Assembly: GCF_000744825.1 (NCBI RefSeq)
Contig: NZ_JQMR01000001.1
Coordinates: 620,001 to 684,000 of the forward strand
Reading direction: 5' to 3'
DNA from: Carnobacterium mobile DSM 4848
GTDB taxonomy: Bacteria > Bacillota > Bacilli > Lactobacillales > Carnobacteriaceae
DNA: 64,000 bases
The notes under the pieces were generated by a model. It did no database searches and had not been told where the DNA came from. It saw only the letters and a program-made list of their open reading frames with translations. Below are positions 3,703-31,790 of the stretch, piece after piece; the first letter of the stretch is position 1, and every line of letters starts with the position of its first letter. Made by a program: the position numbers and the translations under genes.

Positions 3703-3728
3703 GAACACGTTCGAATTCAAATAAGCCC

Positions 3729-3846
3729 CATCTTCTTTATCCAGACTTTACTGTCGGTACTGGAATTAAACCAGTTCAACCAGATAATGCTATCTAGCTC
3801 GTGGACTATACCACCGGTCGGGAATTACACCCTGCCCCTGAAGACG
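3729..3846 (-). promoter_or_regulatory. FMN riboswitch (RFN element)
   Basis: The minus strand carries the conserved RFN core: AGGGGCAGGGTG, then ATTCCCGACCGGTGGT, then CCAGTACCGACAGTAAAGTC and GGAT. P1 is formed by TCTTC near 3844-3840 and GAAGA near 3735-3731. The aptamer is complete. Confidence 0.96.
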
Positions 3847-3883
3847 AATCTATTATTTTTTTAGTACTTTTCTGTACTATTAA

Positions 3884-29343: not shown

Positions 29344-29835
29344 ATGGCAAAAGAGGCAAGTTTTGATATTGTATCTGAAACCGATCTGGAAGAAGTAAAA
29401 AATGCTATTCAAATGACAAAAAAAGAAATTGCTACTCGTTTTGATTTCAAAGGAACGATAAGCGATATTAACCTTGAAAAAGATCAATTGGTGTTTCTTT
29501 CAGAAAGCGAATTTAAATTAGAACAAGTAAAAGATATCTTAACTGGAAAATTAATCAAACGAAATGTTTCATCTAAAAATCTTCAGTTTGGAAAAGTTGA
29601 AAAAGCCTTTGGTGGAAACGTGCGCCAAGCTGCTGATTTGGTGAATGGAATCAATAAAGAACACGCTAAAACGATCACACAACTAATCAAGCAATCTGGC
29701 GTCAAAGTCAAATCGCAGATACAAGAAGACCAAATACGTGTGACTGGTAAAAACAGAGACGATTTACAAAAAGTCATTTCTATTTTACGTGAAGCTAAAT
29801 TACCAATCGCTCTACAATTCACTAATTATCGTTAA
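29344..29835 (+). CDS. yajQ: YajQ-family nucleotide-binding protein (UPF0234)
   Basis: A 163-residue protein with two ferredoxin-like domains: [16 protein letters not shown] at the start and [16 protein letters not shown] at the end. Homologues bind RNA, and in Xanthomonas cyclic-di-GMP. GGAGGA lies 7 bases before ATG 29344. The role in lactic acid bacteria is unknown. Confidence 0.9.
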
Positions 29836-29842
29836 ACACCAA

Positions 29843-29876
29843 TAAAGAGGTTGGGGCTTTTGTCCCAACCTCTTTC
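29843..29876 (+). terminator. Terminator after yajQ
   Basis: AAAGAGGTTGGGG pairs with CCCAACCTCTTT; only a short T run follows. Confidence 0.8.
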
Positions 29877-30030
29877 CTACGTTTAGTCAAGAGAAATATC
29901 ATCAATAAATACAGATCGTTTTTACTTCGTTGCATTCTCCCTTGGAGAATGAAGATATTGGGAGCTATTTTAGAAAATAAGAACATGACAAATAAACATC
30001 CCTTTTCCTATTTTTTTGAAGAGGGTTATG

Positions 30031-31260
30031 TTATATTAATGTTATAGATTGGCTCTTAGAGGCCGTGTACGCATAGTCGTACTTGGTATGGTTCCTCACC
30101 ATGGAATGCATACATTTCAGTAGTTTGTTCATGCAGGCTACGACTGCAACCTTGTCCTTCTTGGGGACGGGTTGCTTTTTTAATTTATAATAATAATCTA
30201 CGATATGATTCGGTGCAGATTTCTGTTGGCGTATCATATTGCGCACGCTAAAAAACAAAATTTTCCTCCCTTTCGGATTGCCACGTTTATTGATATGGTC
30301 CTTGCCTGTATAATTGCCAGATTGGTACCTGCGGATATCAATGCCCACAAAGGCATTCAGCTGATTGGACGTTTCAAATCGCCGCACGTCGCCCAGTTCC
30401 CCGATCAATAAGGCTGAGGACAGTTCACCAATCCCTGGAATTGTGATGTATAAATCGTGTTCAGGCAGTTCTCTCGCCATATCTATCATCTGGTCTTGGA
30501 GTGCTTCCTTTTGGAGGAGTAGGTCCTGAAGTCTTTCCGCATAATAAATGGTCTTTTGACAATGGACACTATTTTCGGTCACAGCTGGATAAGCATCCTG
30601 TGCCAAATTGATTAATTCTTCCGCCTTCTTGCGGGCCCGATTTTCAGAGATGTTTTTCCGGGTAGATTTAAGGAATAAGTTTTTTATTTTAGTCGGTGTG
30701 GACCGCAAGACGAGGTCGGGGTGTGGGAACAGACTAATCAACGTCAAGGCGTAAGAGTTGATCCGGCTCGAGAAAAACTGTTCCAGCTCTGGGAATACCA
30801 GTTGGAGACAGTTGTGCAAGTGCATACGCATTCGTTTGACTTCTTCCTCCACCTCTTGATAGAAGCGGGATAAATCGCGCAGGTCTTGGTAGACATCTTT
30901 CTGCACCACCTTCGATGTCCGTCTTTTCCCGGCATGGGTTTGCGCCAACTTGTGGGCGTCTTGTTTGTCGGTCTTCCAGCTCCTCAAAGTATCTTCTTCC
31001 AGTTGTTTCTTGGCCTGAAGCGGGTTTAGCAGGGCATAGGGCAGATCGTTCTTTTGACAGAAGGATTCTACCGGTCGTGAATAGACGCCTGTAGCTTCAA
31101 AAACCACTTCCGGAGTCTGCGGCAGATTCTGTATTTCATTCAACAGGATGTCAAAACCTGTTCTTGTGTGTGCAACGATGCCTTCCCATAAGCAAGTGTT
31201 GCTTTCATAGATTACAGCGTAGCTTTTCTTCATGGAAACGTCTAGCGCTACTACAAACAT
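30031..31260 (-). CDS. IS110-family transposase (DEDD recombinase)
   Basis: A 409-residue recombinase. The RuvC-like domain has Asp7 (VALDVSMKK), Glu55 (VFEATGVY), Asp98 and Asp101 (TDKQDAHKL), the full DEDD set. A coiled-coil middle (about 130-270) leads to the Transposase_20 domain with IPGIGELSSALLIGELGD and the candidate catalytic Ser314 (RRYQSGNYTGK). It is full length and intact. Such enzymes use a bridge RNA made from the element's non-coding end to choose target and donor. Confidence 0.93.
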   Translation of the reverse strand: MFVVALDVSMKKSYAVIYESNTCLWEGIVAHTRTGFDILLNEIQNLPQTPEVVFEATGVYSRPVESFCQKNDLPYALLNPLQAKKQLEEDTLRSWKTDKQDAHKLAQTHAGKRRTSKVVQKDVYQDLRDLSRFYQEVEEEVKRMRMHLHNCLQLVFPELEQFFSSRINSYALTLISLFPHPDLVLRSTPTKIKNLFLKSTRKNISENRARKKAEELINLAQDAYPAVTENSVHCQKTIYYAERLQDLLLQKEALQDQMIDMARELPEHDLYITIPGIGELSSALLIGELGDVRRFETSNQLNAFVGIDIRRYQSGNYTGKDHINKRGNPKGRKILFFSVRNMIRQQKSAPNHIVDYYYKLKKQPVPKKDKVAVVACMNKLLKCMHSMVRNHTKYDYAYTASKSQSITLI

Positions 31261-31450
31261 GTTTTTCTCCTCGCTTTCTTTTTGTTTGAAAGACCCTCAC
31301 TGATTCATTTCGATTCCCATTTCCTTTACACGGACTCACGGTCCCACATACTTAAAACTGATTCTGAAATGACAGTGAAGGAGCTCGGTTTTTGATTCGG
31401 ACTCGAAGTCCTGGAGGCTACGGTCGAGCTTCCTTTCACCACTACTATAT
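31261..31450 (-). ncRNA. Candidate bridge RNA region of the IS110 element
   Basis: Non-coding leader of the transposase. Minus-strand transcript: an outer stem GAAGCTCG/CGAGCTCCTTC (about 31431-31377) enclosing hairpin GGACTTCGAGTCC (31411-31399), then hairpin GGACCGTGAGTCC (31344-31332). Two hairpins with a shared GGAC/GTCC stem and different loops fit the two-loop plan of IS110 bridge RNAs, but guide loops were not matched to the element ends. Confidence 0.5.
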
Positions 31451-31479
31451 CCCAAAAAAAGAAAATAGCAGGCAGGAAC

Positions 31480-31790
31480 CCCCGTCGGGGTTTCTACCTA
31501 CTAATCTTAGTATGTTTTGCATATCCGAATGTTTATGCTAGAACGTGTTCCAAAAAGCAGGTCCAACGTCCACTTTGTCATGCCTGTAGTAGCTTTAGCT
31601 ACGTACAGATTTGATACACTTAGGCGCTAGCTTAAAGTGATTCTATTAAATACTCGGTTGTCGTGTGACCATACTGCGCTTATTCGTTCCAGTTGCCTTA
31701 GTCCTTGCAGCTTTAGCTGCTTAGGGATACGGTATGCGAGGTAGAAGATTCGGGTCTAAACGCTTTTTGTCTTACTCCCTTTATTTGGAT
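31480..31790. other. Structured intergenic region of unknown kind
   Basis: No gene. It holds a GC-rich hairpin AACCCC/GGGGTT (near 31479-31495) and three further stems: CTGTAGTAGC/GCTACGTACAG around TTTA (31584-31608), CACTT/AAGTG (31617-31639) and CCTTGCAGC/GCTGCTTAGG around TTTA (31703-31725). Two stems share the core AGCTTTAGCT. It may be a non-coding RNA or a dispersed genomic repeat. Confidence 0.5.

What the first reader, a model, noticed from the sequence alone, without database searches (positions are those of the whole stretch)
31261..31450. IS110 transposase leader with paired hairpins: candidate bridge RNA
The transposase (30031-31260) keeps the full DEDD set and the C-terminal Ser. 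The non-coding stretch before it folds into two hairpins with the same GGAC/GTCC stem and different loops, inside or next to an outer stem. Established knowledge: IS110-group elements encode a bridge RNA, in the non-coding left end, that pairs with both target and donor DNA. The fit here is inferred.
Basis: partly seen in the sequence, partly recalled or inferred. Interest (0 to 1): 0.6.

Follow-up and report, generated by a model that had tools for sequence, protein, structure and literature searches.

The report
Terminator-targeting insertion sequence's guide RNA
This is a jumping gene that carries its own two-loop guide RNA; the RNA steers it into the base of transcription terminators, and it is wired in the opposite direction to the best-studied relative, IS621.

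Summary
A 1,640-bp IS110-family element (window 29876-31515, minus strand) has a 255-nt non-coding left end upstream of an intact 409-aa DEDD/Ser transposase, with two GGAC-N5-GTCC hairpins. Empty copies of the host repeat in the same genome and about 50 insertions in relatives define the ends (core AA in an A-run). Across 34 related left ends, all four guide segments pair with their predicted DNA: right target, left target and left element end with 0 of 20,000 shuffles as good, right end with 53 of 20,000. The three re-tested within clades (all but the right-end guide) still hold (0, 0 and 23 of 20,000). The hairpins and loop stem covary. So the stretch encodes a bridge RNA (seekRNA). Corrections: both loops are wired the IS1111 way (5' strand reads the right side, 3' strand the left), opposite to IS621, and there is an IS1111-like subterminal inverted repeat with 7/3-bp extensions; yet the RNA lies upstream of the transposase as in the IS110 group. 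Targets are often the 5' base of intrinsic terminators. The closest named relative is ISSep2. I call it a new variant of a known kind. In the window copy alone only the left-end guide beats chance; the rest rests on comparison.

The parts
29876..31515 (-). IS110-family element, 1,640 bp, flanked on each side by core AA within an A-run
   Evidence: empty sites in the own genome; ends shared by multi-copy relatives with different flanks
30031..31260 (-). transposase, 409 aa, D7/E55/D98 and S314 conserved
31261..31515 (-). left end (non-coding), encodes the predicted bridge RNA
31500..31510 (-). left subterminal inverted repeat CTAAGATTAGT (7 bp AAACATA outside it)
   Evidence: 9/11 match to the right copy, 0-5 out of register
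29877..29887 (-). right subterminal inverted repeat ACTAAACGTAG (3 bp GAA outside it)
29885..29890 (-). TTGACT, would be the -35 box at the circle junction (18-nt spacer)
   Evidence: by inspection; conserved in relatives
31504..31509 (-). TAAGAT, would be the -10 box at the circle junction
   Evidence: by inspection
31466..31503 (-). 5' stem-loop
   Evidence: fold; compensated in relatives by eye
31425..31429 (-). target-loop stem, 5' strand GCUCG
   Evidence: covariation
31412..31424 (-). right-target guide; UAGCCUC (31414-31420) pairs with top-strand GAGGTTG
   Evidence: 0/20,000; within clades: 0/20,000
31399..31411 (-). target-loop hairpin GGAC-UUCGA-GUCC
   Evidence: covariation
31386..31398 (-). 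[quoted passage not shown]
   Evidence: 0/20,000
31383..31387 (-). target-loop stem, 3' strand CGAGC
   Evidence: covariation
31346..31353 (-). donor guide for the left end: AGUAUGU pairs with top-strand ACATACT
   Evidence: compensatory changes in L058, L068, L070, L051
31332..31344 (-). donor-loop hairpin GGAC-CGUGA-GUCC
   Evidence: covariation
31318..31326 (-). donor guide for the right end: AGGAAA, same sense as right end TAGGAA
   Evidence: weakest of the four (53/20,000)
29844..29875 (-). target: A-run plus 12-bp stem of a terminator-type hairpin, AAAGAGGTTGGGACAAAAGCCCCAACCTCTTT; its 5' arm is the right target
31516..31781 (-). left flank: a roughly 270-bp dispersed repeat whose other copies run straight into the terminator

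Best explanation
The left end encodes a bridge RNA (seekRNA) that the element's transposase uses for cut-and-paste insertion through a circular intermediate. [quoted passage not shown] The second loop (about 31318-31353) reads the element's own joined ends the same way: its 5' strand pairs with the left end, its 3' strand with the right end. Recombination takes place in the shared AA. Relative to IS621 the RNA-DNA complex sits the other way round on the element, as described for IS1111 elements, although the RNA gene is upstream of the transposase. Shown here: ends, guides, covariation, terminator targets. Inferred: transcription from the TTGACT-18-TAAGAT circle-junction promoter, binding to the transposase, and the chemistry.
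For: Ends and empty sites. Guide pairing over 34 left ends and 41 insertions: right-target guide 6.82 against 4.51 +/- 0.24 shuffled (0/20,000; wrong strand not significant), left-target guide 6.90 against 5.67 +/- 0.17 (0/20,000; wrong strand not significant), left-end guide 8.21 against 7.38 +/- 0.13 (0/20,000), right-end guide 5.26 against 4.91 +/- 0.12 (53/20,000). The first three hold when shuffling only within clades: 0, 0 and 23 of 20,000; the right-end guide was not re-tested that way. Compensatory donor changes: ACATATT with AATATGT, ACTTACT with AGTAAGT, ACAGACT with AGTCTGT. Structure covariation. Catalytic residues. Terminator-type hairpin directly to the right of 18 of 46 insertions against 2.6% of control positions.
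Against: In the window copy taken alone only the left-end guide is beyond chance (5/5,000); right-target guide 323/5,000, left-target 1,650/5,000, right-end 1,131/5,000. The window's right-target guide would fit GAGGCT better than its actual GAGGTT (one G-T wobble more). Close relatives' guides are not perfectly private: L072's guide scores higher on L043's site than L043's own guide does. No transcript data. The shuffles do not fully remove relatedness.
Confidence: 0.93

Rival explanations
1. The left end is a standard IS621-type bridge RNA in which the 5' strand of each loop reads the left side and the 3' strand the right side.
For: Position upstream of the transposase is the IS110-group position.
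Against: Right-target guide against the bottom strand and left-target guide against the top strand show no signal, while the reversed assignment gives 0/20,000.
Confidence: 0.03
2. The structured leader is mainly a regulator of transposase expression (attenuator or translation switch), and the loop complementarities are incidental.
For: A GC-rich 5' stem-loop is followed by a T-rich run (31450-31503); three partly exclusive helices are all supported by covariation, own pairings better than shuffled with 0/5,000 each.
Against: It does not explain why loop sequences change together with target flanks and with the element's own ends. A regulatory role could coexist with the guide role.
Confidence: 0.03
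3. Terminator preference comes from DNA hairpin recognition by the transposase (as in IS200/IS605 elements) and not from RNA pairing.
For: 18 of 46 right flanks are hairpins against 2.6% of controls.
Against: Relatives of the same clade insert at non-hairpin sites that match their guides (L056 CTCGTTT with AAACGAG, L058 AATAACCAT with ATGGTTATT).
Confidence: 0.02

Closest known systems
ISSep2 (IS110-family element of staphylococci, as named in NCBI annotation)
   Same: 41% identical transposase; the same left tip AAACATACTAAGATTAG, two-hairpin left end, right tip TTGACTAATCGTAGGAA, inserted at a terminator-like hairpin AAAGAGCATATGATATATGCTCTTTTTTT
   Different: different guides and host; no bridge RNA description of ISSep2 was seen in the papers searched (titles and abstracts only)
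IS621 bridge RNA (PMC11208160, PMC11208158)
   Same: upstream RNA, two loops with a hairpin each, target loop then donor loop, -35/-10 boxes split between the two ends, DEDD plus Ser
   Different: guide order reversed in both loops; core AA instead of CT; 11-bp subterminal repeat instead of 2-3 bp; transposase about 80 aa longer and very distant
IS1111-group elements and seekRNA (PMC11187229; IS4321 used here as reference)
   Same: top-strand complement precedes bottom-strand match; subterminal inverted repeat with 7-bp and 3-bp extensions
   Different: RNA upstream rather than downstream of the transposase; transposase falls in a separate well-supported clade (100/100)

Membership tests
IS110 family in the wide sense | RuvC-like DEDD domain (PF01548) plus PF02371 domain with catalytic Ser | tested here: met
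   (NF033542 above cut-off)
IS110 family in the wide sense | no target duplication; joins restore the empty site; circular intermediate | tested here: inconclusive
   empty sites fit a core of AA within an A-run; the circle itself was not testable
bridge RNA / seekRNA | two internal loops complementary to target and donor DNA on both sides of the core | tested here: met
bridge RNA / seekRNA | RNA transcribed and bound by the transposase | not testable with these tools
   needs RNA sequencing and pull-down
IS110 group (IS621-like) | bridge RNA in a left end longer than the right end | tested here: met
   left end 255 nt, right end 155 nt
[quoted passage not shown]
   reverse order
IS1111 group | subterminal inverted repeats of about 11-13 bp with 7-bp left and 3-bp right extensions | tested here: met
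   9/11 in the window, 7-10/11 in most relatives, weaker (3-6/11) in L048, L068 and L071
IS1111 group | top-strand complement precedes bottom-strand match in the RNA | tested here: met
   rule from PMC11187229
IS1111 group | RNA downstream of the transposase | tested here: not met
   RNA lies upstream; exceptions such as ISMtsp17 are reported
IS1111 group | transposase groups with IS1111-type transposases | tested here: inconclusive
   separate clade of 13 rows, 100/100, on a long stem; deep placement unresolved, IS621 and ISCro4 only as partial sequences

The most novel reading that the evidence does not exclude
Guide polarity and RNA position are uncoupled in the IS110 family: this ISSep2-like clade carries an upstream bridge RNA with IS1111-type polarity and IS1111-type ends, so guide polarity goes with the end structure and not with where the RNA gene sits. 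In IS621 terms the complex would sit inverted on the element (its AA core reads TT on the other strand, a core that IS621 tolerates), and the first strand exchanged would be the bottom strand.
Probability: 0.6. Interest if true: 0.6.

Novelty: new variant of a known kind. Interest (0 to 1): 0.5.

Why it matters
It adds a large, natural set of guide-target pairs in Bacillota, with natural re-aiming among elements about 90% identical in transposase (L021, L043, L044, L072). It breaks the simple rule that an upstream RNA means IS621-type guide order, which bears on how the IS110 and IS1111 groups arose. Landing at the base of terminators is a plausible way to spare genes: 18 of 46 insertions sit directly 5' of a strong hairpin.

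Tried and rejected
Rfam: no family matches the left end. Megablast of the element against plasmids and phages: no match. A scan of the genus for the element by DNA gave only fragments. Pairwise scores could not decide between IS1111 and IS621 kinship (55.5 bits to IS4321, 52.3 to IS621). The energy of the 180-nt stretch alone is not significant. RNAalifold on the MAFFT alignment recovered only the two hairpins and part of the target-loop stem, because the outer stems shift by a base between clades. I considered a terminator/attenuator-only role and a DNA-hairpin-recognition model and kept them as rivals.

Full report
What is there. The window lies at G000:C1:620001-684000 of a 2.63-Mb genome whose species I did not identify; relatives of the element found in the same order and by name are Enterococcus, Lacticigenium and other Bacillota. 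On the minus strand, the ORF 30031-31260 encodes a 409-aa transposase with PF01548 and PF02371 domains. D7, E55, D98 and the second D of KTDKQDA, and S314 in RYQSG align with the catalytic residues of IS4321 (Thr at the Ser position), ISCro4 and IS621; IS621 was available only as fragments starting at residue 36, so its first D is not covered.

Ends. The left flank of the element is a roughly 270-bp repeat present elsewhere in the same genome. Its other copies run directly from CGGATATGC into an A-run and GAGGTTGGGAC...GTCCCAACCTC, a terminator-type hairpin. In the window that junction is interrupted: CGGATATGC-AAA-ACATACTAAG on the left and CGTAGG-AAA-GAGGTTGGG on the right. Relatives with several copies in one genome (G306, G073, G109, G298) give the same ends at different flanks: AAACATAC (AAACAACC in G073) on the left and GTAGGAA or GTAGAAA on the right. 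The element is therefore 29876-31515 with a shared AA; the exact dinucleotide cannot be fixed inside the A-run.

Guides. I took 13-14 nt on either side of each hairpin in 34 distinct left ends and scored ungapped pairing (G-U allowed) with the predicted DNA, against 20,000 re-dealings of DNA among elements. The segment 5' of the first hairpin pairs with the top strand right of the core (6.82 against 4.51 +/- 0.24; 0/20,000) and not with the bottom strand. The segment 3' of it pairs with the bottom strand left of the core (6.90 against 5.67 +/- 0.17; 0/20,000) and not with the top strand. The segment 5' of the second hairpin pairs with the element's left end (8.21 against 7.38 +/- 0.13; 0/20,000), with compensatory pairs in L058, L068, L070 and, with one mismatch, L051. 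The segment 3' of it matches the right end (5.26 against 4.91 +/- 0.12; 53/20,000). Shuffling only within three clades leaves the first three intact: 0, 0 and 23 of 20,000; I did not repeat that control for the right-end guide, which is the weakest of the four. Good single cases are L054 (GAGGCTTTTT with AAAAAGCCTC), L058 (ATGGTTATT with AATAACCAT), L082 and L083 (GGGCTTTTT with AAAAAGCCC) and L061 (left target TAAACTAAAC). In the window copy taken alone only the left-end guide is beyond chance, so the case rests on comparison.

Structure. Both hairpins and the base stem of the first loop covary: 91.7% of cells paired, 61 double-changed cells against 16.8 +/- 3.3, covariation score 0.592 against 0.234, no shuffle of 500 as high on these three measures, and sliding the partner by one base collapses the signal. 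The outer stems are more complicated. The strand 31373-31383 can pair with 31432-31439 or with 31294-31302, and 31432-31439 can also pair with 31288-31293; all three pairings beat shuffled partners (0/5,000 each). They are partly exclusive, so the RNA may switch; this is an observation without a tested function.

Polarity. [quoted passage not shown] For IS1111 elements the order is reversed (PMC11187229). Here the order is the IS1111 one in both loops. The ends also carry an 11-bp subterminal inverted repeat with 7 bp outside on the left and 3 bp on the right (9/11 in the window, 10/11 in several relatives, weaker in L048, L068 and L071), the IS1111 hallmark given in PMC11187229. Yet the RNA is upstream, as in the IS110 group. 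The transposase clade (with ISSep2) is separate from IS4321 and from IS621/ISCro4 at 100/100 support, with unresolved deep placement.

Targets. Directly right of 18 of 46 insertions is a hairpin with a stem of at least 8 bp, against 33 of 1,288 control positions. The window element sits at the base of a 12-bp terminator stem just past the ORF 29344-29835. Other clade members insert at non-hairpin sites that still match their guides, so pairing and not the hairpin is the likely determinant.

Mechanism. Inferred from the anatomy and from IS621 and seekRNA work: joining the ends in a circle would bring TTGACT (29885-29890) and TAAGAT (31504-31509) to an 18-nt spacing, giving a promoter for the RNA and the transposase; the ribonucleoprotein then recombines circle and target at AA. 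None of this was measured here.

Status. ISSep2 shows the same anatomy, and I saw no description of its RNA in the papers listed, though ISfinder-wide predictions in PMC11208160 may include it. I rate it a new variant of a known kind.

Noticed in passing
G000:C1:1902906-1903100 (L015, L027): A left end with a complete-looking bridge RNA but no transposase directly after it; its left-target guide ATGTCAAAC matches its own left flank TTATGTCAAA. A second, decayed left end lies at G000:C1:1203962-1204066.
   Followed up: partly
window 31516-31781 and about nine other places in the genome: Dispersed intergenic repeat of up to 270 bp that ends in a terminator-type hairpin; copies vary by internal deletions.
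   Followed up: partly
window 31288-31439: Three partly exclusive helices in the leader RNA, each supported by covariation, suggest two conformations.
   Followed up: partly
G000:C1:1160969-1161934 and 1804750-1805715 (L022, L023): Two copies of another IS110-family transposase, 24% identical to this one; its RNA was not examined.
   Followed up: no
L063 and L066: Left ends of 180 nt lacking the stretch from the first hairpin to the second, that is most of both loops, so perhaps defective elements.
   Followed up: no
window 3726-3849: FMN riboswitch on the minus strand.
   Followed up: no
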